From: Marchantia polymorpha subsp. ruderalis | Taxonomy: Eukaryota; Streptophyta; Marchantiopsida; Marchantiales; Marchantiaceae | Length of the DNA: 64,000 nucleotides | NCBI GenBank assembly: GCA_037833965.1 | Contig: AP031353.1 | Location: 17,362,501-17,426,500 of the forward strand | Direction: 5' to 3' | In this document: positions 1,416 to 17,991 of the stretch, piece by piece | Layout of the letters: the number at the start of each line of letters is the position of its first letter | Position numbering within the stretch: the stretch's first letter is position 1 | Program-made: the position numbers and the translations under genes | Notes under the pieces: model-generated | Told to the model about the DNA's origin: nothing | The model's database searches: none | What the model saw: the letters and a program-made list of their open reading frames with translations, nothing else

Positions 1416-1869
1416 TGTGGTACCCCACTTTTGGCAATTTTGAGGAAATTAAAACATTTTTGGAAAACTGTACCCTGGCAGCATTGTAAATAGCCTTCGG
1501 TACATCAAAACAGAGTGAATCCGGAAGATCGCGGGGATTCTCGAGGGATCTTGTAGAATCTGGGAGTTGGGGTGCCGCAGTAAGCACAGGCACCACCCTC
1601 CCTGCGCGCTCTGCAGTTAGGATCTCTACGGCGCAAGGCGCAAAACCCGCCTTCGGAGGTTGCGTCCGCGGCTGTAGGGAAACCCCCGTAATTAGGTCAA
1701 CCCTCGGGCGCCTTGACCAAGTTAGGATCCCGTTGGAAAGAGCTCGACGCACTGATTCCAACGAGCCCAAGAACGCTTGGAACGGACGAGGACTTAGGGA
1801 GTTATCGCTACTGGAAGAAACGGAGGCGGTCGCCTACGGCGGAAGTAGTTCGCCACCGGCGCGAATTCC

Positions 1870-2400
1870 GCCTACGCGGAAGGGGGATTCAAGTTTTGTC
1901 CTATGCGCGGACGAAGGCGTTCGCCTGTGCACAGGCGAAGTAGGGTTAGGGAAGGCGCGAAGTCCGCCTACGCACAGGCGTTTGCCTGTGCACAGGCACT
2001 TCGGCGTCGGCGGAAAATCCGCCTTGGGCCCTAGAAATGCGCCTTGTGAGGTAGAAAGTGTACGGCGCCTTCCGCGCCAGCGCAGCGCCGCGTACGTCGG
2101 AAGAGCCGCCAGAGTAATCCAATCGGTACGGACCGTGCGGACGGCACGGGTGGATGCGCTCTTGGACGGACGGAGTTGCGGCGGCGGAAGCGCCGACGGA
2201 GAGACAAGGAACGGACAGACTGGACGGAGACGGCTGACCACGGTCAACGCCTTCCGCGCCAGCGCAGCGCCGCGGACGGAATTCGCCTGCGCACAGGCGA
2301 ACGCCTGTGCACAGGAGGATGGGGTTCCGCACCGGCGGAGAATCCGCCGAGGCTCCTGCCTGCGCACAGGCAGGAGTTGAATTTTTGTCCGACATGCGGA
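1870..2400. repeat. U3 palindrome cluster (CCTGTGCACAGG family)
   Basis: This non-coding part of U3 holds several copies of the perfect palindrome CCTGTGCACAGG. One is embedded in the 20-bp palindrome at 1920-1939 and others lie near 1988 and 2301. CCTGCGCACAGG variants occur near 2286 and 2359. GC-rich inverted pairs of the GGCGGA...TCCGCC type and a repeated GCGCCAGCGCAGCGCCGC block (about 2070 and 2252) are interspersed. The same cluster lies in the 3' LTR at about 13057-13587. The role is unknown; protein binding or RNA hairpins are possible. Confidence 0.75.
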
Positions 2401-2658
2401 CACACGCGTCAAGGCAGAGGGAGATTGGCCGAGGGACGGTACGAACAAGTGTACCGCGCAAGGCGGAAAACTCGCCTTCGGCGCTACGCCCCCATGTCCA
2501 CAGGGTGACACGCTCGCGGAGTTCAAATCCGCCAATTCGAGCGTGAGAGTTTAATCGACGACGGCGGAGCGTGAAGCCGCGCGTGAGAGCGAAGACCGTT
2601 CCAGCGTACAGCCGGCGCGGCCATCAAGTGAGACGTTCTTCACGACCAAGAGCCGACC

Positions 2659-5600
2659 ATGACCTTCGACCGGGCGGCGGAGAACGTCCCATTCTTGAAT
2701 TCGCGATTCCAATCTCTTGTGCGCGCTGCGCGCATCCATCTGCTGGCTGCGGAACATTCTCGACGTCGTCACACAGGAGATTTCTTGTTGATTGAGGGAG
2801 AAGTGAGTGCGCGTGATTTGGAATTGAGAGCGATTAGAGTTTGCCGAGAGAGAAAGAAGCGCGGGCAGTGCGGAAGTAGAATGAGCGGGCGAGCGAACCC
2901 CAGGAACGCGATGACGAGACCGAGCAGATTGCGGATGGTGCCACTTCGCCTGCCGCAGAACGGGCTGCGCGCTTTCGAGGAGCGCTTAATAGCAAGAAAG
3001 CTCGATTTCTTGCTATGGGGATGGAATTACATCTGTGCGAATATGGTGCGCGAGTGGCTAGAGCCACAGGGACCACCCTTGCGCGGATTGCGTCCGCATG
3101 TTGATCGGTGGACAGTCCAAGATTGGGCGCAGGCGTTGGGAAGATGTGCTGGCATGCCAGGGCATCTCCTTTTCGACAGCGAGAGCATCAAGGTGACCAA
3201 GCAAGAAGAGGCGCAATTTGTGGAGCTGTTCAAGACCGGGAGGTCTACCAAGAATGGGTACAGGACCCGTGATTACAAGGATCGATTTCGCCGGACTCTG
3301 TCCGCGGCGCTGATGCAATTACTGCAGCCGCACCGCGCCTGCTACATCACATTGTGGCAAGTCTCTTTTGTGGAGTGCGTCATCGAGGGAACTCCAATTC
3401 ACTGGGCGAGCATCCTGCACAGGGTGATGCGACAGCACGCGTTTGAGGAGAAGGGGGGAACTCTAAACCATCTTTCTCCTTTCCTCATCAATTTTTATCG
3501 ACAGCGGAATTGTTTGACAGCGGCGGAGCTTGAACATTTTCCGCCATTGTCCATCGACCATCCCGGGAAGTATGTGCGGGAGAACGAGGTCGATACTGAT
3601 GCAGAGGAGTCACCGACTTCTACCCCATCAAGACGGAGGGACGAAGGGAGACACACCCCTGCAGCGCGAGTGCCGCGGAAGCGGCGATGGAGGGAAGAGT
3701 CTGAAGAGGAGCAGCATCAAGAACCCTCTGCTCCCATTCGACCGCGGCCGCTGTGCGAGCCATACAGCCGGCCGAAGCAGAAGGCACGCAGACTGGTGTT
3801 ACCAGCTGACAGTGCGGACACGGCGACGATTGCGACGGAGATAGGAAGTGCGTCGCCAGAGAGGCGAGAGGAAGCGCGGACGACCGCAGGAGCAACGGGC
3901 CACGCTGCAACCTCGTCGGGAGAGAGGCCGCCTACGGGCCAAGGGCCTCCGGAGTTACCACGTGCGATGCGGACAGATGTTACCACGTGCGACGGACGAG
4001 CCTCCGCGGACCGGCGAACACAAGTGGACGTGGATCTACGCTTACGCGTGGGAAGGAGCAGTCCGCCTGTGCACAGGCGCTCACCTGTGCACAGGTCGCC
4101 TGTGCACAGGTCGCCTGTGCACAGGACACCTCCGCACGTGCCGCCTGTGCACAGGCAAGAATCACCCCCGTTCCAACGCAGGAAGGGGAAGGAGCCGGCG
4201 GAAGAACCGCCTACGAGACACCGGCCCTCGGGGCCAGACCCTCCGGCGCACCACGCGCCGCAATTTGCGCCTTCGGCGCCAGGGCCTTCGAGCCGAGGAG
4301 ATACGAGCAGAGAGCGTGCGGAGGCCGCACCATCGGCGGGAAGCCCGCCGATAGATGCGCCTTCGGCGGTAGGGCCTATAGGCCAAGGAACATCGGGCGT
4401 GCGGCCCCCGGCCATGTCGCCTTCGGCGATAGGTGTCCGCGGCGCTACGCCTGCGGCGGACAAGGCGCCGGCAAATGCGCCTGCGCACGGGCCGGGCACA
4501 GCCCCCACGGACCGATCAAGGGAGCAGCAGACGGAGGAGCGGAGTGACTGTCCGCGGGATGAAATCTCGATGCGCGATGCGCAATCAAACCCCGCGCAGC
4601 CACCCTCCGCTCGACCGCCTTCGGCGGCGGACGACGGAGACAGAGAGGACGCGGGAGGCAATCAACAAATAAGCGACGGGGATGCCGCTCGGGTACATTC
4701 GCCTTCCGCCTTAGACATTTTGGCGACGAGCAGCGAGGCTGCAGCCGTGCCTTCGCAGGCAGCACACGTCGAGGACGTGCAGCCCCACTCGGGGCAGTCG
4801 CCAACGCAATCAATGGCGACTGAAATTCTCCACTCGGATGATGACGACGGAGGCTCCACGGAAGAAATGTCAGGAGCAGAAGACACCGAGGAGGAGGAGG
4901 AGGAAATTGTTGGAGCGCCGGCGGCGGCGCTCTCTGAGCAGGTGATTCCGTTGCTGCGGTACTTGGATCGCAAGGTCGATAAATACGCCGACCCACTCCA
5001 GCCGGGATCTTACATCGAGTTAGTGCGCAGGCGGACTTGCACTAAAGTCCACACCAGCAAGCTATTAGCTAGAGTGGACCAGGAGTTGAGGGACTTGAAG
5101 GAGAAGCATGAGTGCTTGTGGGGTCAGTACAAGCTTAATCAGAAATTCTACAAGCACTCCGAGAAGATGAAGGATGAGAAACTGGGCGAGCTCACCAAGG
5201 AGCAGGTGAAGGTCAAGGAAGCACTCGATTCTGAGCAGGCCCAGAATCGGATTTTGTCAGAGGAGCTCGTGCGACAGACGCGGTTGTTGGAACAATGTCA
5301 GCTCGCACGGCAGGCGGATGAAGAATTAATCCGCAGGTTACAGTCAGAGTGTGGCGAATTGAGGGCGCAACGTGCTGAAGCCGAATCGCAATTAGTGATA
5401 ATTGAAGAGGATCGCAGGAAGGAGGCGGATCGCACGAAGGTGGAGACGGCGAGGCGAGTCGCCCACTGCCTCAAGGGCTACGCCCACTGGGAAGTGAAGG
5501 CGCAGGAGAAACTCACACTGCGTGAGTTTGAATTGCGCGCAGCCGGGTTGTTGTCAGGCGACAGTAGGAGTCGGCGGAAGGTAGCAAAGAAGCTCGAAGC

Positions 5601-5793
5601 CTTTCTGTCGAAGGCACAGGATACCATGTCCGCCCTCGAGGGGGAGGTGTCCGCGGCGTTGCAGCGTTTGGGACTGCGCAGTCGAGCGGAAGAGTGGCAG
5701 GGTAGAGAGTTAGTGCGCGGCAGTCGGCCGCGCAGGAGACGTAGTACAGGTTCTGCGGAGTGTAGTGTAGCGTGGTTCCGTGCAGGCGTGTAG
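2659..5793 (+). CDS. LTR-encoded (U3) accessory protein, 1044 aa, 5' LTR copy
   Basis: An uninterrupted 1044-codon frame lies inside the LTR, starting at the first ATG of the open frame. Residues 1-330 look globular, with conserved-looking Trp-rich helices. The stretch around residues 205-300 resembles the 'putative plant transposon protein' domain of accessory ORFs in angiosperm gypsy elements; this is from memory and not searched. Residues 330-715 are Pro/Arg/Ser-rich and disordered, and include PVHR repeats encoded by palindromes. An acidic run (about 720-755) precedes a long coiled coil (about 800-930). No signal peptide or membrane segment is apparent, so it is not env-like. This copy lies upstream of the LTR TATA box, so the genomic RNA would carry only the 3' LTR copy; this one would need its own promoter. 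Confidence 0.85.
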   Translation: MTFDRAAENVPFLNSRFQSLVRAARIHLLAAEHSRRRHTGDFLLIEGEVSARDLELRAIRVCRERKKRGQCGSRMSGRANPRNAMTRPSRLRMVPLRLPQNGLRAFEERLIARKLDFLLWGWNYICANMVREWLEPQGPPLRGLRPHVDRWTVQDWAQALGRCAGMPGHLLFDSESIKVTKQEEAQFVELFKTGRSTKNGYRTRDYKDRFRRTLSAALMQLLQPHRACYITLWQVSFVECVIEGTPIHWASILHRVMRQHAFEEKGGTLNHLSPFLINFYRQRNCLTAAELEHFPPLSIDHPGKYVRENEVDTDAEESPTSTPSRRRDEGRHTPAARVPRKRRWREESEEEQHQEPSAPIRPRPLCEPYSRPKQKARRLVLPADSADTATIATEIGSASPERREEARTTAGATGHAATSSGERPPTGQGPPELPRAMRTDVTTCDGRASADRRTQVDVDLRLRVGRSSPPVHRRSPVHRSPVHRSPVHRTPPHVPPVHRQESPPFQRRKGKEPAEEPPTRHRPSGPDPPAHHAPQFAPSAPGPSSRGDTSRERAEAAPSAGSPPIDAPSAVGPIGQGTSGVRPPAMSPSAIGVRGATPAADKAPANAPAHGPGTAPTDRSREQQTEERSDCPRDEISMRDAQSNPAQPPSARPPSAADDGDREDAGGNQQISDGDAARVHSPSALDILATSSEAAAVPSQAAHVEDVQPHSGQSPTQSMATEILHSDDDDGGSTEEMSGAEDTEEEEEEIVGAPAAALSEQVIPLLRYLDRKVDKYADPLQPGSYIELVRRRTCTKVHTSKLLARVDQELRDLKEKHECLWGQYKLNQKFYKHSEKMKDEKLGELTKEQVKVKEALDSEQAQNRILSEELVRQTRLLEQCQLARQADEELIRRLQSECGELRAQRAEAESQLVIIEEDRRKEADRTKVETARRVAHCLKGYAHWEVKAQEKLTLREFELRAAGLLSGDSRSRRKVAKKLEAFLSKAQDTMSALEGEVSAALQRLGLRSRAEEWQGRELVRGSRPRRRRSTGSAECSVAWFRAGV
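4064..4157 (+). repeat. In-frame palindromic tandem repeat (PVHR units)
   Basis: There are five CCTGTGCACAGG palindromes. Three or four are spaced by 15 bp, so each adds one SPVHR-like pentapeptide to the ORF. The 3' LTR (about 15268-15347) has four, one 15-bp unit fewer, and both reading frames stay open. The repeat can thus vary in number without breaking the protein. Confidence 0.9.
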
Positions 5794-5829
5794 CGTAGTG
5801 CAGTGTAGTGTTAGGTAGGACTTAGAAGG

Positions 5830-5838
5830 TATAAAATA
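5830..5838 (+). promoter_or_regulatory. LTR TATA box
   Basis: TATAAAATA sits 37 bp after the stop codon of the LTR ORF and about 970 bp before the LTR end. Transcription of the genomic RNA would start about 25-35 bp downstream (near 5860). This places the ORF in U3 and the following 0.95 kb in R plus U5. The identical motif is at 17020-17028 in the 3' LTR. Confidence 0.7.
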
Positions 5839-6584
5839 GTTCCAGGCGTTTTGCCTGGGGTTCTTTCCCATCAGAAGTGCAGATCAGGAACCCATTTCCT
5901 TTGCGTGTTTGTGTCCTTGAGTTCTGTCACCACGCACGAGGAGTTACAACTTAGCGTTCCGCATTTTGTAGCTGAAGGCCTTCGGCCGAATGTTCAGAGC
6001 TAGTACATTGGTTAGAGACTTGAGTAGTTCGGATCTGCACCTGCGGGTGACTGCCGATGCTCAGAGCCAGTGACTAGTTAGATACTTGAACAGTTTCGCC
6101 CCTACACCTTCGAGTGTTTCTTTCTGATTGTACTCCTTGGGATTTTTCCCCTGAATGCCAAAGTGAAGTTTTGCTACTTCGTGTAAGCCTTGGTTGTAAA
6201 TTCAGGTTACGCTGCAGCAGGTGCCTTGAGGGTAACCCCTGTAGTATTTCTGGGAATGACAAGTGCCTGAGAATTCAAACTCTTCAATAGACTGTTGTTG
6301 TGTTACTGGAATGTTTCTCAGTGAGTCCTTCAGTGCGGACCTGTGTTCTCTGCGCGTTTTGTGAGTTGAGAGTGCTGTTCACCGCGTATGAGTGACTTCG
6401 ATCCGAAGTAGGCAGTCCAAACCGGGTTTCCTACACTAGCAGCAAGCTAGTGGAAGTGTTGTAAAAGCCGGAGTTGGAAGTCACTGCCCGCAGCTTTGCC
6501 GAGTGTGCTCTTGAGAGACTTTCCCCCTGAAATCTTGAAGTAGAGGTCCTAACGGATCTCTAGGTTGTGTTTCTGTAGTTTCAG

Positions 6585-6608
6585 GTGTGTGTGTGTGTGT
6601 GTGTGTGT
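6585..6608. repeat. (GT)12 microsatellite in 5' LTR U5
   Basis: Twelve GT units here correspond to ten in the 3' LTR (17775-17794). This length change accounts for part of the difference between the two LTRs. Confidence 0.95.
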
Positions 6609-6827
6609 TACGCTGCACTGTGCGACCTCCGAGTGCGCTCCGAGTGGACACTTGCAGTATTTCTGGGAGTGACAGTCGCCTGAGAATTCAAACTCATCAA
6701 TAGTCTGTTAAACGTGACACTTTGTACCCTGTGTGTTCCTCTGTCCATGTGGGTTCGACCTTTCTACCACTATATTGCAGTTTTAGCCTTTAGTGGGTTA
6801 TTACATAAGAAGCCGACAACTTCTTTT

Positions 6828-6844
6828 TGGCGCCGCTGCCGGGG
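6828..6844 (+). other. Primer binding site, complementary to tRNA-Asp 3' end
   Basis: TGGCGCCGCTGCCGGGG, starting 22 bp after the 5' LTR, matches the complement of the plant tRNA-Asp 3' end (TGGCGCCGTTGCCGGGG, recalled) at 16 of 17 positions. A tRNA-Asp PBS is known in plant gypsy elements. The gap of over 20 bp between LTR and PBS is larger than in many elements. Confidence 0.8.
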
Positions 6845-6892
6845 ACAGTTGCGTCAACACCGGGGTTTTTTACGAGCAGCCATGCTCGGTGA

Positions 6893-9724
6893 ATGTCGAA
6901 TGGGGCTGGCGGGAGCAACCTAAGTGCTAGAGCTGTCCGCAAGTTCCGACGAGATTCAGAGAAGGCCGTGGAAGAGACACGGCGTCAAAACAAGAAAACA
7001 CCAAAAAGAGTATCTAAGCCTAGTTCGGCCGACACCCTTGGGGAACCTACCCCCGGCGACTCGGAACCAAACTTGGTGCTTACAGTTCTACTAGATATTC
7101 CTTGCACGGACCCGCCTCGTGAAGTAGAACCGACCGCCCGAAGACCGTCGACAGACACACCGATGGCGGACGGACAAGCCAATGTGCGGCTACCTCAGCC
7201 GATTACTAAACATTCCTACCCGAAGTACAAAGGGAGTGGGGATGACGACGATGCAGATTCATACATCAAGTTGTTCGAATCGGTGTCTATTGCCAATCGC
7301 GAGATCGCAGACGACGACCGACTAAGGATCTTTCCAAGCCTTCTGCGGAAGAAAGCGAGGAGTTGGTACAATCACGAGAGTATCGATCCGACTAGGTTGA
7401 CAACATGGGCCCAGCTGAAGGAGAAGTTCCTTCGCCGCTTTCGCGAGCTCGGCTACGACAGCCGGGTTTTAACAAAGTTACGTAATTTGCAGCGAGAGAA
7501 GAAGGAGAGTCTGCGTGACTACACTGAGAGATTTCTGGACCTCCTCGACAGAATACCGAAAACAAGACCAGGGTCCCCTTTCTCGGTACAACAAGCTGTG
7601 GATTGGTACGTGACCGGTTTAACTCGGGAGATGGAGACTTTTTGCCGACGCAGCAAGTGCGACACTATTGAGGATGTGATTGCATCGGCGGAAGCCTTCG
7701 AAACTTCCACTCTCAACCGAAGAGGGAGAGAGAGACGGGAGTCGAAAGAGCGAAAACCGAAGGGAGGGCGAAGACGACGTAGAGGTACAACTCCGTCATC
7801 GGAGGAATCGTCTTCGGACGAGAACCGTTCCTCATCCGAAGAAGAGGAAACCTCATCGTCGGAGGAGGAGAAGAAGAGGAAGGAGCATGGGTCAGCGAAG
7901 AAAAAGGGCACCCGACGAGTGACTGCGGACAGAGCGCCGGGAGATATAGCTTCGAAGATGGAGACCCTTGTGAAGGACTTCGCCGATCTCAAGGTTCAAG
8001 TGGTAGGCGGGCATGATCGCCGAAAATCACCCGGGAGAGTGCGAGCGAACTTATGGTGTACTACGTGCGGGGCGGTGGGACATGCAAACACCGAGTGTCT
8101 TACCACCCGTCCGTCATATCCAGTCAACGCAGTAGAGTGGGCCCAACCGTACTATGGAGAGCACCCTCAGTACTATGGAGAGGCTAGCGAAGAAACAGCC
8201 TACGCCGTCCAGTCGGTTCCTACCCCTCCTGCAGTTTCAGCAATGCAAGTCCCACGATATATTCCGGTGGATCGGGCCACTACAGTACCCGTGAGGCGGA
8301 GAGCACCTCCAGGGACGTTTGACCCACCGCCACCGCGAGCTTGTTATAATTGCGGGGAAGTTGGGCACTTCTCACTGCAGTGTCCCCATCCAAAGAGGCG
8401 AAACGATTATGCTCCGACATGTAGTAATTGCAAGAAGATCGGGCATACTGCGCCAGAGTGTGATCAGCCACCAGTCCCTCGGCCAGCGGTACGATTTGTG
8501 AACACTCCTGCCAAGGAGGACGTCCAAGTAAACCAGGTCGAAGTAGGTTCAGACGGGGATGGCGAAGACGAAGAATGGCCGGCTGAAGAGGTTATGTGCG
8601 CACGGGTCGAAACTCGTAGTTCCAAGAAATCGAAGGAGCAAGAGCGGGACACTCGCAAGCACGAACGGAGAACCGACGACCGGACGGGAAAAGGGAAGGA
8701 GAAGACATCCAGCAAGTCCGACTCGCGACCTGCTCGGAAGTCTTCGGCTACGCGGGAGGCACCAGCAGTGCGCCCCCAGACAGCAGTCGAGGACGAGCCA
8801 GTGCGTCTACTGAAACGTGACTATGCTCCGGATATCCGCAATGAGGTAGCCAACCTGTTGCAGGAAGCGATCCGCACTCAAAAGGACCCACCGCGGCCAG
8901 ACTTGACCTCCTCCCTTGGGGCGAAGTTAGCAGCCACCGTGGAACCTCGCAGAGCGTCGCCGACCCCGGCGCCCCAACGCGCCCACTATGACTTGGTCGA
9001 AGATCTCGGGAGTCGAAAAGTGAACATCACGTTCAAGCAGCTCTTGGAGGACAATAAGACGTATCGGAGAATGTTGATGCTTTCGCTACGGCATCCGCGG
9101 AAGCCGCGCGCATCCACATCCTCTCAAGTATATCAAGTGGAGAGCGAAGACCAAGGGCCACCCGAGATCGATGTGGAGATAGCAGGATGTTGTGTACGCA
9201 GAGTGCCAATCGACTCTGGATCAGGAGTCAACATAATGACGGAGGATACAGCGAGAGCCTTGGGGTTCAGTCAATACGAACCCTCGAAGCGTGTGTTGAG
9301 ATTAGCGGATCAGACGCGGAGAATGCCTGCAGGTATGCTGCGCAATGTCAAGACAATCATCGGGGGTGCGGACTTTCGGTTGACGTATATCATCCTTCAA
9401 CCGATGATGAAGCAGGGCTATGACGTTCTGCTCGGGCGACCATGGCTATATGGCGCACAAGTCAGATGTGATTGGCGAAGGCATCGCCTTAAGTTTCCTC
9501 ATCCTTCGGAACCGACCAAAACCATTACGGTGCCCTGGAATAGGGTCAGGCACGAAGGAGAGACCCCATCGACAAGTGCAGGTTACACATCGGGCGAGGA
9601 CAGTGAGTCGACCGCGCGATCGGATTCCAGTGGTACCGAATCCGATTACTTCGTGGGATTCGTTGCCTGCTGTTCGGTGGGAGAAGAAGAAGAGCCGGAA
9701 GCTATTCCGCCGGAAGACGAATAG
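6893..9724 (+). CDS. gag: Gag-protease polyprotein (943 aa), ends in a leaky-type TAG
   Basis: Residues about 105-235 form a retrotransposon Gag capsid-like domain, including a SWYNHE-type motif and an FLRRF helix. A basic, serine/glutamate-rich stretch follows. Three CCHC zinc knuckles start near residues 386, 482 and 508. A retropepsin-like aspartic protease has its DSG catalytic motif near residue 772 (VPIDSGSGVNIM). The ATG at 6893 was chosen because the nearby ATG at 6882 is out of frame. The frame ends at TAG 9722-9724 and is in phase with pol. The protein should form the virus-like particle, bind RNA and supply the protease. Confidence 0.93.
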   Translation: MSNGAGGSNLSARAVRKFRRDSEKAVEETRRQNKKTPKRVSKPSSADTLGEPTPGDSEPNLVLTVLLDIPCTDPPREVEPTARRPSTDTPMADGQANVRLPQPITKHSYPKYKGSGDDDDADSYIKLFESVSIANREIADDDRLRIFPSLLRKKARSWYNHESIDPTRLTTWAQLKEKFLRRFRELGYDSRVLTKLRNLQREKKESLRDYTERFLDLLDRIPKTRPGSPFSVQQAVDWYVTGLTREMETFCRRSKCDTIEDVIASAEAFETSTLNRRGRERRESKERKPKGGRRRRRGTTPSSEESSSDENRSSSEEEETSSSEEEKKRKEHGSAKKKGTRRVTADRAPGDIASKMETLVKDFADLKVQVVGGHDRRKSPGRVRANLWCTTCGAVGHANTECLTTRPSYPVNAVEWAQPYYGEHPQYYGEASEETAYAVQSVPTPPAVSAMQVPRYIPVDRATTVPVRRRAPPGTFDPPPPRACYNCGEVGHFSLQCPHPKRRNDYAPTCSNCKKIGHTAPECDQPPVPRPAVRFVNTPAKEDVQVNQVEVGSDGDGEDEEWPAEEVMCARVETRSSKKSKEQERDTRKHERRTDDRTGKGKEKTSSKSDSRPARKSSATREAPAVRPQTAVEDEPVRLLKRDYAPDIRNEVANLLQEAIRTQKDPPRPDLTSSLGAKLAATVEPRRASPTPAPQRAHYDLVEDLGSRKVNITFKQLLEDNKTYRRMLMLSLRHPRKPRASTSSQVYQVESEDQGPPEIDVEIAGCCVRRVPIDSGSGVNIMTEDTARALGFSQYEPSKRVLRLADQTRRMPAGMLRNVKTIIGGADFRLTYIILQPMMKQGYDVLLGRPWLYGAQVRCDWRRHRLKFPHPSEPTKTITVPWNRVRHEGETPSTSAGYTSGEDSESTARSDSSGTESDYFVGFVACCSVGEEEEPEAIPPEDE

Positions 9725-9730
9725 CAATTA
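9722..9730 (+). promoter_or_regulatory. Probable translational readthrough stop (TAG CAA TTA) between gag and pol
   Basis: Gag and pol share one frame with only this stop between them. The six bases after TAG are CAATTA, which fits the CAR-YYA rule for leaky UAG codons known from tobamoviruses. Pol has no in-frame ATG for about 62 codons after the stop, and by then the RT domain has begun. Both points favour readthrough over independent initiation. The alternative is a plain nonsense mutation of a single gag-pol frame, but the exact match to the leaky context argues against chance. Confidence 0.75.
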
Positions 9731-12565
9731 ACTGTGGGACTGGGAAGGAGTGAGACGAGTCACACCGAGGGCATTGTCGACCCTAGTGACTGTCACGAAG
9801 TACAACTCAGTCCCGGCAAGTGCTTGAAGGTATCAAGCGCAGTGAGAGGAGACGAGCTAAGGAAAGTACAGGCATTCCTTAGCCATTATGTCGACGTCTT
9901 CGCCTGGAAGATCGAAGACATGAAGGGGATACCTGCACGGTATGGGGAACACCGTATCGATTTACTGGACGACTCAGTACCCATACGACAGCGCCAGTAT
10001 CGCCTCAACCCAAAATACTCCTTGCTAGTTAAAGAGGAGATAGATAAGTACTTGAGCGCTGGAATTATTTACCCTGTGCTCAGCAGCGAGTGGGTGTCGC
10101 CGATTGTTATCGTACCCAAGAAGTTGACGGGTAAGATACAAGTGTGTCAGGATTTCCGGAAGTTGAATGCAGCAACACGCAAGGATCATCACCCGTTACC
10201 ATTCACGGATGCCATTCTAGACCATGTCGCAGGACATGAATGTTATAGCTTCCTGGATGGGTTCTCAGGTTACAATCAGGTGTCTATCCGTGAACAGGAC
10301 AAGGATAAAACTACGTTCACAACCGACTGGGGAACTTACGCATACCACAAGATGCCCTTCGGTCTGTGCAACGCGCCTGCCACCTTTCAACGGATGATGA
10401 CCAATATCTTTCAGGAACAACTGAGGAAGTTCCTGGAAATATTCATAGATGACTTCTGTGTCTTTGGGAAGCGGTCTGAACACTTAAGTCACTTGAAGCA
10501 GACCTTCGATAAATGTAGAGAGAGCAGTTTATCACTGCATCCCGAGAAGTGCTTTTTCTTCATGACTAGTGGGATCTTGTTGGGTCATCGGGTCTCGGCA
10601 GACGGCATTGCGGTGGACATCGAGAAGGTCAAGGTTATACTCGAGCTTGAGCCACCCACGAATCTAAGAGAGCTGCGAGCATTCCTGGGTCATGTGGGCT
10701 ACTACCGAAGATTCATACACCTGTATGCAGTACTGGCGGCGGACCTGACCAAGTTGTTGAAGAAGGACGAGCCCTATGCCTGGGGTGCGAACCAGCAGAC
10801 AGCATTTGAAGCTCTGAAAGCGAAACTCACGACTGCTCCCGTACTAAGGAGTCCAGACTGGAATCGACCATTCCATGTTTACGTTGACACCTCGGCATTC
10901 GCCATCGGTGTAGTACTGAGTCAAAAGGATGACAACAAAAAGGACTACCCGATCTACTTCGCGAGCCGACAGCTGTCTCTAGCAGAGCGGAAGTACACCA
11001 CGACGGAGAGAGAAGCGTTGGGGATGGTGTACTCCTGTAAAAAGTTCCGCCACTACCTAATCTGCTACGAGTTTGTGTTCCATGTGGACCACTACGCATT
11101 GCAACACCTAGTCAAGAAAGCCGACCTATCTGGTCGGATCGCCAGGTGGGTGTTATTACTACAAGAGTTCACCTACACAGTCCAGACCAGGAAAGGGGTA
11201 CACCACGAAAATGCGGATTACTTGTCCCGATTATGGACACAGCCGACAGAGGAGGAATTGGTGGACGATTTTCCAGATGAAGAGTTATTTCAGTTGTCTG
11301 CAGGACATGAGTCCCGCTATGCCGACCTGTATCGATATCTGCTAACCCTCCAGTGTCCCGAAGGCATGGATTTGGAACAGCGAACTGTCTTTATTCATAA
11401 GGCAGGCCCGTACCAACTCCAGCAGGGGGTTTTGTTCAAGAAGATGGCAGATGAGCGCTTATGCAGATGCCTGGAGGAATCAGAGGTACCAAGAATAGTG
11501 AGTGCGATGCATACAGAGGAGGCGGGTGGACACTATGCCACCAGGAACACGGTCACAAAGATCCTAAATGCGGGGTATTGGTGGCCGACCATGTTTAAGG
11601 ATGTTCACGATTACATCCGCAAGTGCGACAGTTGCCAGAGGACGGGGAGACCGACGCCTACAACACGCTGGCCCCTGACTCCCATCATGCCTCTAGCACC
11701 GTTCGAAAAGTGGGGTATTGACTTTGTAGGGCCGATACAACCAGTGACTAGAAGTACACGAAGGCGCTACATTCTGGTAGCAACGGACTATGCCACCAAA
11801 ATGGTAGAGGCCAGAGCCACCAGAAAGGATGATGCTGCCACAGTGGCAGCATTCTTGTTTGAATCGATCATCACACGCTACGGATGTCCCTTAGAGCTAG
11901 TCAGCGACCGGGGCACGCATTTTCTGAATCAGATCATCGAAGATCTGACACGGTATTTCCACATCAAGCACCGGAAGACTACTCCATACAATCCCAAGGC
12001 AAATGGACTGACGGAGAAGTCCAATGGTCTGCTGTGTAAAATACTACTCAAGGTCACGGTGAATCACGCTCACGACTGGGATACGAAGCTAGCAGCCGCT
12101 CTATGGGCGTACCGCACAGCTGAGAAGATCACGACCAAACAGACACCATACTTTCTGGTGTATGGGCAACACCCGATCCTCCCGATCGAATTTGAAGTAC
12201 CCACCCAACGAACGTTGGATTTGCAGAGGATGGGCGCAGAGGAGAGTCAGCTCTACAGGTTACAGGAGGTCACGCTGCTGGATGAGAGGAGAAGAGACGC
12301 CGAAGATCGCACCAGGAAAATCCAGCTCCGTCGAAAGGAGAGATACGATAAAAAGATCAAACCGGTACTCCTGCAGGCGGGTGATTTGGCATTACTCTAC
12401 GACAGCAGGCATGCCAGATTCCCAGGCAAACTGCACCTAAGGTGGATGGGACCTTACAGGGTTGTCGAAGTCTTCCCGAATGGATCCATCCAACTTGCGG
12501 ACCTGGCCGGCGATTTGTTAGGCACCCGAGTGAACGGGTGGCGGTTGAAGAAATACCACATGTGA
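9725..12565 (+). CDS. pol: Pol: reverse transcriptase, RNase H, integrase (expressed by readthrough)
   Basis: The frame is open from the codon after the gag TAG to TGA at 12563-12565. RT shows YHKMPFGLCNAPATFQ and an FIDDF catalytic box near residue 238. RNase H has its first acidic residue near 384 (HVYVDTS) and a TEREAL motif. Integrase has an H-H-C-C zinc domain from about residue 595 and DDE catalytic residues near 663 (WGIDFVG), 725 (SDRGTH) and 762 (GLTEKSNG). No chromodomain is present. The C-terminal RWMGPYRVVEVFPNG and VNGWRLK motifs are typical of the Tat/Athila branch. I see no stop or frameshift. Only 37 bp separate the pol stop from the 3' LTR, so there is no env-like gene in the internal region. 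Confidence 0.95.
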   Translation, partial: QLTVGLGRSETSHTEGIVDPSDCHEVQLSPGKCLKVSSAVRGDELRKVQAFLSHYVDVFAWKIEDMKGIPARYGEHRIDLLDDSVPIRQRQYRLNPKYSLLVKEEIDKYLSAGIIYPVLSSEWVSPIVIVPKKLTGKIQVCQDFRKLNAATRKDHHPLPFTDAILDHVAGHECYSFLDGFSGYNQVSIREQDKDKTTFTTDWGTYAYHKMPFGLCNAPATFQRMMTNIFQEQLRKFLEIFIDDFCVFGKRSEHLSHLKQTFDKCRESSLSLHPEKCFFFMTSGILLGHRVSADGIAVDIEKVKVILELEPPTNLRELRAFLGHVGYYRRFIHLYAVLAADLTKLLKKDEPYAWGANQQTAFEALKAKLTTAPVLRSPDWNRPFHVYVDTSAFAIGVVLSQKDDNKKDYPIYFASRQLSLAERKYTTTEREALGMVYSCKKFRHYLICYEFVFHVDHYALQHLVKKADLSGRIARWVLLLQEFTYTVQTRKGVHHENADYLSRLWTQPTEEELVDDFPDEELFQLSAGHESRYADLYRYLLTLQCPEGMDLEQRTVFIHKAGPYQLQQGVLFKKMADERLCRCLEESEVPRIVSAMHTEEAGGHYATRNTVTKILNAGYWWPTMFKDVHDYIRKCDSCQRTGRPTPTTRWPLTPIMPLAPFEKWGIDFVGPIQPVTRSTRRRYILVATDYATKMVEARATRKDDAATVAAFLFESIITRYGCPLELVSDRGTHFLNQIIEDLTRYFHIKHRKTTPYNPKANGLTEKSNGLLCKILLKVTVNHAHDWDTKLAAALWAYRTAEKITTKQTPYFLVYGQHPILPIEFEVPTQRTLDLQRMGAEESQLYRLQEVTLLDERRRDAEDRTRKIQLRRKERYDKKIKPVLLQAGDLALLYDSRHARFPGKLHLRWMGPYRVVEVFPNGSIQLADLAGDLLGTRVNGWRLKKYHM

Positions 12566-12589
12566 GTGTTCGCGTGGGCGCTCACAATT

Positions 12590-12600
12590 GAGGAGGGGGG
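12590..12600 (+). other. Polypurine tract
   Basis: GAGGAGGGGGG lies two bases before the 3' LTR and is the expected primer for plus-strand DNA synthesis. Confidence 0.88.
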
Positions 12601-13845
12601 CATGTGGTACCCCACTTTTGGCAATTTTGAGGAAATTAAAACATTTTTGGAAAACTGTACCCTGGCAGCATTGTAAATAGCCTTCGGTACATCAAAACAG
12701 AGTGAATCCGGAAGATCGCGGGGATTCTCGAGGGATCTTGTAGAATCTGGGAGTTGGGGTGCCGCAGTAAGCACAGGCACCACCCTCCCTGCGCGCTCTG
12801 CAGTTAGGATCTCTACGGCGCAAGGCGCAAAACCCGCCTTCGGAGGTTGCGTCCGCGGCTGTAGGGAAACCCCCGTAATTAGGTCAACCCTCGGGCGCCT
12901 TGACCAAGTTAGGATCCCGTTGGAAAGAGCTCGACGCACTGATTCCAACGAGCCCAAGAACGCTTGGAACGGACGAGGACTTAGGGAGTTATCGCTACTG
13001 GAAGAAACGGAGGCGGTCGCCTACGGCGGAAGGAGTTCGCCACCGGCGCGAATTCCGCCTACGCGGAAGGGGGATTCAAGTTTTGTCCTATGCGCGGACG
13101 AAGGCGTTCGCCTGTGCACAGGCGAAGTAGGGTTAGGGAAGGCGCGAAGTCCGCCTACGCACAGGCGTTTGCCTGTGCACAGGCACTTCGGCGTCGGCGG
13201 AAAATCCGCCTTGGGCCCTAGAAATGCGCCTTGTGAGGTAGAAAGTGTACGGCGCCTTCCGCGCCAGCGCAGCGCCGCGTACGTCGGAAGAGCCGCCAGA
13301 GTAATCCAATCGGTACGGACCGTGCGGACGGCACGGGTGGATGCGCTCTTGGACGGACGGAGTTGCGGCGGCGGAAGCGCCGACGGAGAGACAAGGAACG
13401 GACAGACTGGACGGAGACGGCTGACCACGGTCAACGCCTTCCGCGCCAGCGCAGCGCCGCGGACGGAATTCGCCTGCGCACAGGCGAACGCCTGTGCACA
13501 GGAGGATGGGGTTCCGTACCGGCGGAGAATCCGCCGAGGCTCCTGCCTGCGCACAGGCAGGAGTTGAATTTTTGTCCGACATGCGGACACACGCGTCAAG
13601 GCAGAGGGAGAATGGCCGAGGGACGGTACGAACAAGTGTACCGCGCAAGGCGGAAAACTCGCCTTCGGCGCTACGCCCCCATGTCCACAGGGTGACACGC
13701 TCGCGGAGTTCAAATCCGCCAATTCGAGCGTGAGAGTTTAATCGACGACGGCGGAGCGTGAAGCCGCGCGTGAGAGCGAAGACCGTTCCAGCGTACAGCC
13801 GGCGCGGCCATCAAGTGAGACGTTCTTCACGACCAAGAGCCGACC

Positions 13846-16800
13846 ATGACCTTCGACCGGGCGGCGGAGAACGTCCCATTCTTGAATTCGCGATTCCAAT
13901 CTCTTGTGCGCACTGCGCGCATCCATCTGCTGGCTGCGGAACATTCTCGACGTCGTCACACAGGAGATTTCTTGTTGATTGAGGGAGAAGTGAGTGCGCG
14001 TGATTTGGAATTGAGAGCGATTAGAGTTTGCCGAGAGAGAAAGAAGCGCGGGCAGTGTGGAAGTAGAATGAGCGGGCGAGCGAACCCCAGGAACGCGATG
14101 ACGAGACCGAGCAGATTGCGGATGGTGCCACTTCGCCTGCCGCAGAACGGGCTGCGCGCTTTCGAGGAGCGCTTAATAGCAAGAAAGCTCGATTTCTTGC
14201 TATGGGGATGGAATTACATCTGTGCGAATATGGTGCGCGAGTGGCTAGAGCCACAGGGACCACCCTCGCGCGGATTGCGTCCGCATGTTGATCGGTGGAC
14301 AGTCCAAGATTGGGCGCAGGCGTTGGGAAGATGTGCTGGCATGCCAGGGCATCTCCTTTTCGACAGCGAGAGCATCAAGGTGACCAAGCAAGAAGAGGCG
14401 CAATTTGTGGAGCTGTTCAAGACCGGGAGGTCTACCAAGAATGGGTACAGGACCCGTGATTACAAGGATCGATTTCGCCGGACTCTGTCCGCGGCGCTGA
14501 TGCAATTACTGCAGCCGCACCGCGCCTGCTACATCACATTGTGGCAAGTCTCTTTTGTGGAGTGCGTCATCGAGGGAACTCCAATTCACTGGGCGAGCAT
14601 CCTGCACAGGGTGATGCGACAGCACGCGTTTGAGGAGAAGGGGGGAACTCTAAACCATCTTTCTCCTTTCCTCATCAATTTTTATCGACAGCGGAATTGT
14701 TTGACAGCGGCGGAGCTTGAACATTTTCCGCCATTGTCCATCGACCATCCCGGGAAGTATGTGCGGGAGAACGAGGTCGATACTGATGCAGAGGAGTCAC
14801 CGACTTCTACCCCATCAAGACGGAGGGACGAAGGGAGACACACCCCTGCAGCGCGAGTGCCGCGGAAGCGGCGATGGAGGGAAGAGTCTGAAGAGGAGCA
14901 GCATCAAGAACCCTCTGCTCCCATTCGACCGCGGCCGCTGTGCGAGCCATACAGCCGGCCGAAGCAGAAGGCACGCAGACTGGTGTTACCAGCTGACAGT
15001 GCGGACACGGCGACGATTGCGACGGAGATAGGAAGTGCGTCGCCAGAGAGGCGAGAGGAAGCGCGGACGACCGCAGGAGCAACGGGCCACGCTGCAACCT
15101 CGTCGGGAGAGAGGCCGCCTACGGGCCAAGGGCCTCCGGAGTTACCACGTGCGATGCGGACAGATGTTCCGTTTGCGCACAGGCGAACCTCCGCGGACGG
15201 ACGAGCCTCCGCGGACCGGCGAACACAAGTGGACGTGGATCTACGCTTACGCGTGGGAAGGAGCAGTCCGCCTGTGCACAGGCGCTCACCTGTGCACAGG
15301 TCGCCTGTGCACAGGACACCTCCGCACGTGCCGCCTGTGCACAGGCAAGAATCACCCCCGTTCCAACGCAGGAAGGGGAAGGAGCCGGCGGAAGAACCGC
15401 CTACGAGACACCGGCCCTCGGGGCCAGACCCTCCGGCGCACCACGCGCCGCAATTTGCGCCTTCGGCGCCAGGGCCTTCGAGCCGAGGAGATACGAGCAG
15501 AGAGCGTGCGGAGGCCGCACCATCGGCGGGAAGCCCGCCGATAGATGCGCCTTCGGCGGTAGGGCCTATAGGCCAAGGAACATCGGGCGTGCGGCCCCCG
15601 GCCATGTTGCCTTCGGCGATAGGTGTCCGCGGCGCTACGCCTGCGGCGGACAAGGCGCCGGCAAATGCGCCTGCGCACGGGCCGGGCACAGCCCCCACGG
15701 ACCGATCAAGGGAGCAGCAGACGGAGGAGCGGAGTGACTGTCCGCGGGATGAAATCTCGATGCGCGATGCGCAATCAAACCCCGCGCAGCCACCCTCCGC
15801 TCGACCGCCTTCGGCGGCGGACGACGGAAACAGAGAGGACGCGGGAGGCAATCAACAAATAAGCGACGGGGATGCCGCTCGGGTACATTCGCCTTCCGCC
15901 TTAGACATTTTGGCGACGAGCAGCGAGGCTGCAGCCGTGCCTTCGCAGGCAGCACACGTCGAGGACGTGCAGCCCCACTCGGGGCAGTCGCCAACGCAAT
16001 CAATGGCGACTGAAATTCTCCACTCGGATGATGACGACGGAGGCTCCACGGAAGAAATGTCAGGAGCAGAAGACACCGAGGAGGAGGAGGAGGAAATTGT
16101 TGGAGCGCCGGCGGCGGCGCTCTCTGAGCAGGTGATTCCGTTGCTGCGGTACTTGGATCGCAAGGTCGATAAATACGCCGACCCACTCCAGCCGGGATCT
16201 TACATCGAGTTAGTGCGCAGGCGGACTTGCACTAAAGTCCACACCAGCAAGCTATTAGCTAGAGTGGACCAGGAGTTGAGGGACTTGAAGGAGAAGCATG
16301 AGTGCTTGTGGGGTCAGTACAAGCTTAATCAGAAATTCTACAAGCACTCCGAGAAGATGAAGGATGAGAAACTGGGCGAGCTCACCAAGGAGCAGGTGAA
16401 GGTCAAGGAAGCACTCGATTCTGAGCAGGCCCAGAATCGGATTTTGTCAGAGGAGCTCGTGCGACAGACGCGGTTGTTGGAACAATGTCAGCTCGCACGG
16501 CAGGCGGATGAAGAATTAATCCGCAGGTTACAGTCAGAGTGTGGCGAATTGAGGGCGCAACGTGCTGAAGCCGAATCGCAATTAGTGATAATTGAAGAGG
16601 ATCGCAGGAAGGAGGCGGATCGCACGAAGGTGGAGACGGCGAGGCGAGTCGCCCACTGCCTCAAGGGCTACGCCCACTGGGAAGTGAAGGCGCAGGAGAA
16701 ACTCACACTGCGTGAGTTTGAATTGCGCGCAGCCGGGTTGTTGTCAGGCGACAGTAGGAGTCGGCGGAAGGTAGCAAAGAAGCTCGAAGCCTTTCTGTCG

Positions 16801-16983
16801 AAGGCACAGGATACCATGTCCGCCCTCGAGGGGGAGGTGTCCGCGGCGTTGCAGCGTTTGGGACTGCGCAGTCGAGCGGAAGAGTGGCAGAGTAGAGAGT
16901 TAGTGCGCGGCAGTCGGCCGCGCAGGAGACGTAGTACAGGTTCCGCGGAGTGTAGTGTAGCGTGGTTCCGTGCAGGCGTGTAG
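13846..16983 (+). CDS. LTR-encoded (U3) accessory protein, 1045 aa, 3' LTR copy
   Basis: This is the second intact copy of the LTR ORF, one codon longer than the 5' copy. Amino-acid differences I can see are few: Ala/Thr, Leu/Ser, Ser/Leu, Asp/Asn and Gly/Ser single changes. In addition one SPVHR unit is lost and a short FAHRRTS-type block is gained. Domains are as in the 5' copy. This copy lies on the genomic RNA between pol and the R region, the position of MMTV sag or lentiviral nef relative to U3. Translation would probably need a spliced or internally initiated RNA. The function is unknown; a nucleic-acid-binding or assembly role is only a guess from the basic and coiled-coil regions. 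Confidence 0.87.
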   Translation: MTFDRAAENVPFLNSRFQSLVRTARIHLLAAEHSRRRHTGDFLLIEGEVSARDLELRAIRVCRERKKRGQCGSRMSGRANPRNAMTRPSRLRMVPLRLPQNGLRAFEERLIARKLDFLLWGWNYICANMVREWLEPQGPPSRGLRPHVDRWTVQDWAQALGRCAGMPGHLLFDSESIKVTKQEEAQFVELFKTGRSTKNGYRTRDYKDRFRRTLSAALMQLLQPHRACYITLWQVSFVECVIEGTPIHWASILHRVMRQHAFEEKGGTLNHLSPFLINFYRQRNCLTAAELEHFPPLSIDHPGKYVRENEVDTDAEESPTSTPSRRRDEGRHTPAARVPRKRRWREESEEEQHQEPSAPIRPRPLCEPYSRPKQKARRLVLPADSADTATIATEIGSASPERREEARTTAGATGHAATSSGERPPTGQGPPELPRAMRTDVPFAHRRTSADGRASADRRTQVDVDLRLRVGRSSPPVHRRSPVHRSPVHRTPPHVPPVHRQESPPFQRRKGKEPAEEPPTRHRPSGPDPPAHHAPQFAPSAPGPSSRGDTSRERAEAAPSAGSPPIDAPSAVGPIGQGTSGVRPPAMLPSAIGVRGATPAADKAPANAPAHGPGTAPTDRSREQQTEERSDCPRDEISMRDAQSNPAQPPSARPPSAADDGNREDAGGNQQISDGDAARVHSPSALDILATSSEAAAVPSQAAHVEDVQPHSGQSPTQSMATEILHSDDDDGGSTEEMSGAEDTEEEEEEIVGAPAAALSEQVIPLLRYLDRKVDKYADPLQPGSYIELVRRRTCTKVHTSKLLARVDQELRDLKEKHECLWGQYKLNQKFYKHSEKMKDEKLGELTKEQVKVKEALDSEQAQNRILSEELVRQTRLLEQCQLARQADEELIRRLQSECGELRAQRAEAESQLVIIEEDRRKEADRTKVETARRVAHCLKGYAHWEVKAQEKLTLREFELRAAGLLSGDSRSRRKVAKKLEAFLSKAQDTMSALEGEVSAALQRLGLRSRAEEWQSRELVRGSRPRRRRSTGSAECSVAWFRAGV

Positions 16984-17019
16984 CGTAGTGCAGTGTAGTG
17001 TTAGGTAGGACTTAGAAGG

Positions 17020-17028
17020 TATAAAATA
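17020..17028 (+). promoter_or_regulatory. TATA box of the 3' LTR
   Basis: This is the same TATAAAATA as in the 5' LTR. From here it could drive transcription into the flanking DNA (18.0 kb onward). Confidence 0.6.
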
Positions 17029-17991
17029 GTTCCAGGCGTTTTGCCTGGGGTTCTTTCCCATCAGAAGTGCAGATCAGGAACCCATTTCCTTTGCGTGTTT
17101 GTGTCCTTGAGTTCTGTCACCACGCACGAGGAGTTACAACTTAGCGTTCCGCATTTTGTAGCTGAAGGCCTTCGGCCGAATGTTCAGAGCTAGTACATTG
17201 GTTAGAGACTTGAGTAGTTCGGATCTGCACCTGCGGGTGACTGCCGATGCTCAGAGCCAGTGACTAGTTAGATACTTGAACAGTTTCGCCCCTACACCTT
17301 CGAGTGTTTCTTTCTGATTGTACTCCTTGGGATTTTTCCCCTGAATGCCAAAGTGAAGTTTTGCTACTTCGTGTAAGCCTTGGTTGTAAATTCAGGTTAC
17401 GCTGCAGCAGGTGCCTTGAGGGTAACCCCTGTAGTATTTCTGGGAATGACAAGTGCCTGAGAATTCAAACTCTTCAATAGACTGTTGTTGTGTTACTGGA
17501 ATGTTTCTCAGTGAGTCCTTCAGTGCGGACCTGTGTTCTCTGCGCGTTTTGTGAGTTGAGAGTGCTGTTCACCGCGTATGAGTGACTTCGATCCGAAGTA
17601 GGCAGTCCAAACCGGGTTTCCTACACTAGCAGCAAGCTAGTGGAAGTGTTGTAAAAGCCGGAGTTGGAAGTCACTGCCCGCAGCTTTGCCGAGTGTGCTC
17701 TTGAGAGACTTTCCCCCTGAAATCTTGAAGTAGAGGTCCTAACGGATCTCTAGGTTGTGTTTCTGTAGTTTCAGGTGTGTGTGTGTGTGTGTGTTACGCT
17801 GCACTGTGCGACCTCCGAGTGCGCTCCGAGTGGACACTTGCAGTATTTCTGGGAGTGACAGTCGCCTGAGAATTCAAACTCATCAATAGTCTGTTAAACG
17901 TGACACTTTGTACCCTGTGTGTTCCTCTGTCCCTGTGGGTTCGACCTTTCTACCACTATATTGCAGTTTTAGCCTTTAGTGGGTTATTACA

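What the first reader, a model, noticed from the sequence alone, without database searches (positions are those of the whole stretch)
2659..5793. A 1044-codon ORF lies wholly inside the LTR (U3) and is duplicated intact in both LTRs
Seen: LTR ends are fixed by TG/CA and a 5-bp target duplication, and the ORF (2659-5793; 13846-16983) sits between the LTR start and the TATA box. Known: accessory ORFs of Tat/Ogre and Athila elements lie in the internal region, and U3-encoded proteins are best known from MMTV sag and nef-like genes. Inference: this element has moved or evolved its accessory gene into U3, so the gene is the third cistron of the genomic RNA. It is copied into both LTRs each cycle, and a solo LTR would still carry it. 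I know of no plant element described with this layout.
Basis: partly seen in the sequence, partly recalled or inferred. Interest (0 to 1): 0.9.

Follow-up and report, generated by a model that had tools for sequence, protein, structure and literature searches.

The report
Liverwort retrotransposon gene inside its LTR
A very abundant liverwort jumping gene keeps a large protein gene, shaped by natural selection, inside its repeated ends, so a full copy carries the gene twice and leftover single ends can still carry it whole.

Summary
The window has a complete Ty3/gypsy element: LTRs 1416-6805 and 12603-17991, target duplication AGTCT, gag-protease and RT-RNaseH-integrase between. Each 5.39-kb LTR holds an open frame of 1044/1045 codons ending 37 nt before a TATA box, so it lies in U3. 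Pol stops 38 bp before the 3' LTR: the polypurine tract sits before the extra gene, not after it. The gene is real. Of 20 LTRs sampled without regard to the frame, 19 carry it, 10 uninterrupted; pooled dN/dS is 0.24 in frame against 1.46 and 1.34 out of frame. A diverged subfamily (41-54% identical protein) has the same layout, the TATA box 45 nt after the stop in 4 of 4 copies examined. Solo LTRs with 5-bp target duplications occur in both subfamilies, two of the main one with an open frame. LTR starts number 2,921 in this 241-Mb genome. The 46 relatives found elsewhere are 45 Marchantia polymorpha predictions and one unnamed protein, none with a Pfam domain on record. The protein has conserved N- and C-terminal regions, the latter with a long predicted helix. 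I infer a nuclear helper or regulator; function and expression are untested. MMTV sag is the closest precedent for the layout.

The parts
1416..6805 (+). 5' LTR (5,390 bp), TG...CA, preceded by target duplication AGTCT
12603..17991 (+). 3' LTR (5,389 bp), followed by AGTCT
2659..5793 (+). U3 ORF, 5' LTR copy, 1044 codons
   Evidence: selection; copies in the genome
13846..16983 (+). U3 ORF, 3' LTR copy, 1045 codons
2911..3648 (+). Conserved N-terminal region of the ORF product (residues 85-330); no Pfam match above a curated cut-off
5059..5553 (+). Predicted single helix of about 165 residues, coiled-coil-like, in the conserved C-terminal region (113 of the 303 modelled residues at pLDDT 90 or more)
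5830..5835 (+). TATA box of the 5' LTR; R is inferred to start shortly downstream
   Evidence: same place relative to the ORF in L031-L034
17020..17025 (+). TATA box of the 3' LTR
6828..6845 (+). PBS-like TGGCGCCGCTGCCGGGGA, 22 nt after the LTR end (its resemblance to the Athila/Tat PBS is recalled)
6893..9724 (+). gag-protease: Retrotrans_gag, zinc knuckles, aspartyl protease (protease models match below their curated cut-offs)
9734..12565 (+). RT, RNase H, integrase; no additional RNase H domain matched
12589..12602 (+). Polypurine tract TGAGGAGGGGGGCA, directly before the 3' LTR and just after the pol stop at 12565

Best explanation
This is a young, abundant Ty3/gypsy retrotransposon of a Marchantia-like liverwort whose accessory gene lies wholly in U3. 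Shown: pol is followed within 38 bp by the polypurine tract and the LTR, so the gene that other plant elements place between pol and the 3' LTR falls after the tract. Everything after the tract is U3, so reverse transcription copies the gene into both LTRs. Shown: the gene is under purifying selection, keeps its position just before the TATA box in a diverged subfamily, and is carried by solo LTRs. Inferred: an ancestor began to use a polypurine tract upstream of a 3' accessory gene, and that shift turned the gene into U3. Inferred: the protein is made from the 3' LTR copy, by splicing of the genomic RNA or from a second promoter in the first 1.2 kb of U3 as in MMTV. Inferred with low confidence (about 0.35): it is a nuclear, self-associating regulator or helper of its own element, for example one that counters silencing. 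This rests on its basic motifs, acidic stretches, poorly conserved middle and long predicted helix.
For: Anatomy. Selection: pooled dN/dS 0.241 in frame, 1.455 and 1.337 in the other two forward frames, over the 19 of 20 sampled LTRs that hold ORF DNA; 5 in-frame stops against 61.7 expected from 1,534 substitutions, which are not independent between copies; 8 main-versus-diverged pairs 0.23-0.28, 6 pairs inside the diverged subfamily 0.39-0.52; variants shared by 4 or more of 32 copies are 26 N: 66 S against singletons 134 N: 127 S, Fisher p 1.5e-4. Layout conserved: TATAAA 45 nt after the stop in 4 of 4 diverged copies, and the stretch from the ORF end through R-U5 aligns in all four at 74-85%, to the LTR end in L033 and L034. 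Solo LTRs: 3 of 30 top-scoring loci have a 5-bp target duplication; 3 of 8 diverged loci likewise. Counts at up to 2 mismatches: 2,921 LTR starts, 2,526 ORF starts, 1,140 tract-LTR junctions, 1,367 LTR-leader junctions; reversed-pattern controls 0. C-terminal helix.
Against: No transcript or protein evidence exists. U3 is inferred from the TATA box, not from a mapped start site. Of 20 sampled LTRs, 1 lacks the ORF and 9 have it broken or truncated. Six within-element LTR pairs give pN/pS 0.43 (21.3 N, 15.7 S), below the neutral value of 1, although those copies were picked by protein score and filtered for open frames. In the diverged subfamily one antisense register also gives 0.44-0.69, and the pair L031-L032 shows no third-position excess, 45:40:46. 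The four diverged loci were picked because their frames were open. No family or fold supports the proposed function (the model of the N-terminal region had mean pLDDT 44). A profile comparison with the element's own gag found nothing.
Confidence: 0.72

Rival explanations
1. The gene is a stand-alone LTR gene with its own promoter near the LTR start and its polyadenylation site in R, so each LTR, solo or not, is a complete expression cassette. The genomic RNA merely carries the 3' copy along.
For: MMTV expresses its U3 gene from a second U3 promoter (PMC9412291, passages read). The 1,243 bp before the ORF hold 6 ATG against 15.5 expected from base composition. Solo LTRs keep open frames: L004 and L021 and L034, whose duplication matches 4 of 5.
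Against: No TATAAA or TATATA lies in 1416-2658. The diverged subfamily shows no clear ATG shortage there: 20, 20 and 17 against 21.7-22.9 in three copies.
Confidence: 0.35
2. The gene is copied only because it sits in the LTR, and the frame reflects recent descent rather than present function.
For: The family is young: the window's LTRs differ by 14 substitutions, and the 44 scored copies are 98-100% identical in protein. Half of the sampled copies are broken or lack it.
Against: In-frame dN/dS 0.24 against 1.3-1.5 off frame in the sample, 5 stops against 61.7 expected, and protein conservation across subfamilies and to M. polymorpha.
Confidence: 0.05
3. The protein is a structural or packaging partner of Gag, such as a coiled-coil scaffold of the particle, not a nuclear regulator.
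For: A long predicted helix and no detected catalytic domain.
Against: No similarity to the element's gag was found. Basic motifs such as PRKRRW, conserved in relatives, suit a nuclear protein, but that reading is recalled knowledge.
Confidence: 0.25
4. Transcription of the genomic RNA starts upstream of the ORF, so the ORF is in R or a leader and not in U3.
For: The ATG shortage before the ORF in the window.
Against: The TATA box lies 37 or 45 nt after the ORF in the two subfamilies with a conserved block around it. R-U5 is also short of ATG: 7 against 15.7-15.9 in the window, L033 and L034, though L032's partial R-U5 has 7 against 9.3.
Confidence: 0.1

Closest known systems
MMTV sag/naf (a betaretrovirus of mice)
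   Same: A protein gene in the U3 part of the LTR, hence in both LTRs; a second U3 promoter drives it (PMC9412291, passages read).
   Different: Different host kingdom and no sequence relation tested. The frame here is 1,044 codons (sag is roughly 320, recalled); the function here is unknown.
Additional ORFs of plant Ty3/gypsy elements (Athila, Bagy2, Grande, Retand, RIRE2)
   Same: A lineage-specific accessory gene outside gag-pol, often between pol and the 3' LTR (PMC7264820, part 1 of 3 read and a term search of the whole; PMC11963269, passages).
   Different: Those are described in the internal region, Retand's in antisense. Here only 38 bp separate pol from the LTR, and the gene is in U3.
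Retrosat2 / RIRE3 / RIRE8 ORF0
   Same: Long LTRs (about 3 kb or more) and an extra ORF.
   Different: ORF0 lies upstream of the gag-pol ORF (PMC3485330, passages); the passages seen do not place it inside the LTR.
[not shown]
   Same: Liverwort elements of the Tat group lacking the additional RNase H (PMC10508981, section 5 and passages); the window's pol also shows none.
   Different: No RT tree with named references was made here, and what I read says nothing of an ORF in the LTR.
VANC anti-silencing proteins of VANDAL transposons
   Same: Model for the proposed function only: an element-encoded protein acting on its own family (PMC10398659, start of abstract in a listing).
   Different: VANDALs are DNA transposons (recalled); no sequence relation tested.

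Membership tests
Ty3/gypsy LTR retrotransposon | Two LTRs (TG...CA) with a short target duplication | tested here: met
Ty3/gypsy LTR retrotransposon | gag, protease, RT, RNase H, integrase in that order | tested here: met
   the protease models match below their curated cut-offs (best 22.2 against 24.3 bits)
Ty3/gypsy LTR retrotransposon | tRNA primer site next to the 5' LTR | tested here: inconclusive
   PBS-like motif 22 nt after the LTR; tRNA match recalled, not tested
Tat lineage with additional RNase H | Additional RNase H domain | tested here: not met
   only RT_RNaseH-type models match, at the native position
[not shown]
   absence met; RT clade not tested for want of named references
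Athila or other element with an internal 3' accessory gene | Accessory ORF between pol and the 3' LTR | tested here: not met
   38 bp between pol stop and LTR
MMTV-type U3 gene | Protein gene inside U3, duplicated in both LTRs | tested here: met
   (U3 by TATA position, not by a mapped start)
MMTV-type U3 gene | Expression from a second U3 promoter | not testable with these tools
   no RNA data
Plant transposon protein PF20167 | Matches the Pfam model | tested here: inconclusive
   Not among the families listed for the ORF, P0001-P0004 or the 21 members of A2; the genome search with the model rang in none of the controls

The most novel reading that the evidence does not exclude
The LTR itself has become a dispersed gene: promoter, 1.2-kb leader, protein gene and terminator in one 5.4-kb unit. 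Complete elements carry it twice, and solo LTRs go on making a helper or anti-silencing protein in trans, so the usual route of element loss (LTR-LTR recombination) removes gag-pol but spares the helper.
Probability: 0.25. Interest if true: 0.92.

Novelty: new variant of a known kind. Interest (0 to 1): 0.8.

Why it matters
Accessory ORFs of plant elements are described in the internal region (PMC7264820). A gene of over 1,000 codons under selection inside U3 shows that a plant LTR can be protein-coding. It doubles the gene per element and lets it survive solo-LTR formation. Annotation that treats LTRs and solo LTRs as non-coding could miss it, or call it a host gene, as the M. polymorpha predictions may have been. 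With 2,921 LTR starts in one 241-Mb genome, whether solo LTRs act in trans becomes testable in a model plant group.

Tried and rejected
Viral contig scans with the ORF and with pol found no relatives. Pfam, PDB sequence search and comparison with gag gave no family for the ORF. Pfam was run here on 23 of the 46 relatives; the precomputed Pfam column is empty for all 46. Weak hits each came from one member: Extensin_1 E 0.00019 in P0001 and CENP-K E 0.0018 in P0002, both under their cut-offs, and SCNM1_acidic E 0.0013 in one A2 member, cut-off not shown; I set them aside as low-complexity or coiled-coil matches. The AlphaFold2 model of the N-terminal region was too poor to use (mean pLDDT 44). 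The C-terminal model is mostly one helix, so I ran no fold search. The PF20167 genome search is uninformative because its controls did not ring. I hoped to use M. polymorpha locus tags to place pol beside ORF relatives; the 120 pol hits listed of 2,952 include no AXG93 tag, and four ORF pairs with shared contig tags are 49-76% identical over matched stretches, so they are not LTR pairs of one element. No self-priming match of 8-14 bases was found between 6806-6860 and 5800-6805. In one search, 18 of 50 loci were dropped by a strict start-and-end filter, and 4 of 10 planned LTR pairs with them.

Full report
What is there. Bases 1416-17991 of the window are one complete LTR retrotransposon with target duplication AGTCT. 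The LTRs are 5,390 and 5,389 bp and differ by 14 substitutions and a few indels. The internal region is 5,797 bp and almost all coding: gag-protease 6893-9724 and RT-RNaseH-integrase 9734-12565. Gag starts 88 bp after the 5' LTR, and pol stops 38 bp before the 3' LTR. A purine-rich tract ends exactly at the 3' LTR.

The ORF. Each LTR holds a frame of 1044 or 1045 codons. TATAAA follows 37 nt after the stop in both LTRs. In 300 base shuffles of U3 the longest ATG frame averaged 119 codons and never exceeded 299. With a start site near the TATA box, the ORF and the 1.2 kb before it are U3, and R-U5 is about 0.95 kb. The U3 reading is an inference from the TATA box, supported by a shortage of ATG in R-U5 (7 against 15.9 expected).

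Host. The window lies on contig 4 of a 241-Mb genome in 9 contigs. ORF relatives elsewhere are 45 predicted proteins of Marchantia polymorpha and one unnamed protein, 46 in all. The genome is not that assembly: one of those proteins, P0003, finds at best about 65% identity here. Among the 120 listed pol hits are an unnamed 533-residue fragment at 99% over 57% of the query, Riccia sorocarpa proteins at up to 77%, and an M. polymorpha protein at 48% as the best from that species. I call the host a Marchantia-like liverwort, species not established.

Abundance. Patterns of 30 bases at up to 2 mismatches count 2,921 LTR starts, 2,526 ORF starts, 1,367 LTR-end/leader junctions and 1,140 tract/LTR-start junctions; the reversed controls gave 0. 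The excess of LTR starts over both junction types (414) suggests a few hundred solo or broken LTRs, but this is rough because older junctions are missed and some LTRs have both junctions.

Is the frame selected? I took every fifth of the 100 LTR starts listed, without regard to the ORF. These are exact matches from the first three contigs, so they lean young. Of 20, 19 hold ORF DNA and 10 keep an uninterrupted frame of at least 1,038 codons to the same C-terminus; 9 are broken or truncated and 1 lacks it. Nine pass a strict start-and-end filter. Over the 19, pooled dN/dS against the window copy is 0.241 in frame and 1.455 and 1.337 in the other two forward frames. Differences fall 304:326:904 on codon positions 1:2:3; 15 of 19 have no in-frame stop, and 5 stops were seen against 61.7 expected. 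These comparisons share ancestry and are not independent. Between the main and a diverged subfamily dN/dS is 0.23-0.28 with near-saturated dS; inside the diverged subfamily it is 0.39-0.52, and in all 6 pairs lower in the N and C regions than in the middle. Off-frame forward values there are 0.63-0.98; one antisense register gives 0.44-0.69 and the other two 0.69-1.09; the pair L031-L032 shows no third-position excess. Variants shared by at least 4 of 32 copies are 26 N: 66 S, singletons 134 N: 127 S. Against this, six within-element LTR pairs give pN/pS 0.43 on 37 differences, not the neutral 1; those copies were picked by protein score and filtered for open frames.

Is the layout conserved? 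Four diverged loci were fetched, picked because their frames were open. Their ORFs have 841-855 codons from the conserved methionine, 41-54% identical to the window's over matched stretches, with TATAAA starting 45 nt after the stop codon in all four inside a block that resembles the window's. The stretch from the ORF end through R-U5 aligns at 74-85%, reaching the LTR end GGGTTATTACA in L033 and L034. The 40 best DNA matches of this subfamily, of 2,018 candidates, include no pair about 10 kb apart. Of 8 of these examined at their edges, 3 are solo LTRs with perfect 5-bp duplications; the other 5 lacked an end in the stretch fetched or showed no duplication.

Solo LTRs in the main subfamily. 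Of the 30 best-scoring ORF loci, 3 (L004, L007, L021) are solo LTRs with 5-bp duplications. The ORF is open in L004 and L021 and has one TGA in L007. L034, of the diverged subfamily, is a single LTR with a 4-of-5 duplication and an open ORF.

The protein. No Pfam family reached its cut-off and no PDB sequence matched. The N-terminal region (residues 85-330) is conserved in relatives. The middle is poorly conserved and rich in simple repeats; a basic stretch (PRKRRW, with KQKAR some 35 residues on) is conserved, and there are acidic runs at 727 and 744. The C-terminal region is predicted to hold one helix of about 165 residues, 113 of the 303 modelled residues at pLDDT 90 or more. This fits a nuclear, self-associating protein, which I hold with low confidence.

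How it most likely arose and works. In described plant elements an extra gene often lies between pol and the 3' LTR (PMC7264820). If priming of the second strand moved to a purine tract just after pol, everything downstream, gene included, would become U3. The window's anatomy is what that would leave; the step is inferred. Expression could come from the 3' copy in the genomic RNA by splicing, or from a second U3 promoter as in MMTV (PMC9412291). Nothing here decides between them; no TATAAA or TATATA lies upstream of the ORF in the LTR.

Literature. In the open-access library, one search found one paper holding 'retrotransposon' plus any of five phrases for an ORF in an LTR, and it is on MMTV. 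The listings (11 of 11 and 20 of 50 papers shown, most not opened) showed no plant element with an ORF inside its LTR; two searches returned nothing. Neumann et al. [quoted passage not shown] Subscription papers are not covered.

Noticed in passing
G000:C2:31345293-31390058; L009, L010, L019: Tandem arrays of the element: five LTR starts at exactly 11,184-bp spacing, and LTRs with a polypurine tract before and a leader after them.
   Followed up: no
window 6806-6827; L033 (oriented) after 8052; L062: The PBS-like site lies 22 nt after the LTR end. Two insertions of the diverged subfamily keep the LTR plus about this spacer and stop just before the PBS, as if the cDNA end had not been trimmed.
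   Followed up: partly
window 1924-4155 and 13111-15345 (U3 of both LTRs): The palindrome CCTGTGCACAGG occurs 8 times in the 5' LTR U3 (3 before the ORF, 5 in it) and 7 in the 3' LTR U3, and nowhere else in the window; none in the U3 or ORF of three diverged copies checked for a related 10-mer. It could be a family-specific binding site.
   Followed up: partly
G000:C1 (5.59 Mb), e.g. 2336148/2742517 and 2474617/2880986: LTR-leader junctions recur at an identical offset of 406,369 bp on a small contig, suggesting large duplicated segments, perhaps a sex chromosome.
   Followed up: no
L031 (oriented) around 3270-3340: Two diverged LTRs lie head to head, the forward one apparently lacking its first part.
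   Followed up: no
window 19832-20440, minus strand: A 202-codon ORF that resembles a pogo/Tigger-like DDE transposase (recalled; not searched).
   Followed up: no
window 9734-12565: Pol is up to 77% identical to Riccia sorocarpa proteins but 48% to the best listed M. polymorpha pol, although named ORF relatives were found only in M. polymorpha. This may reflect masked annotation or different histories of pol and the U3 gene.
   Followed up: no
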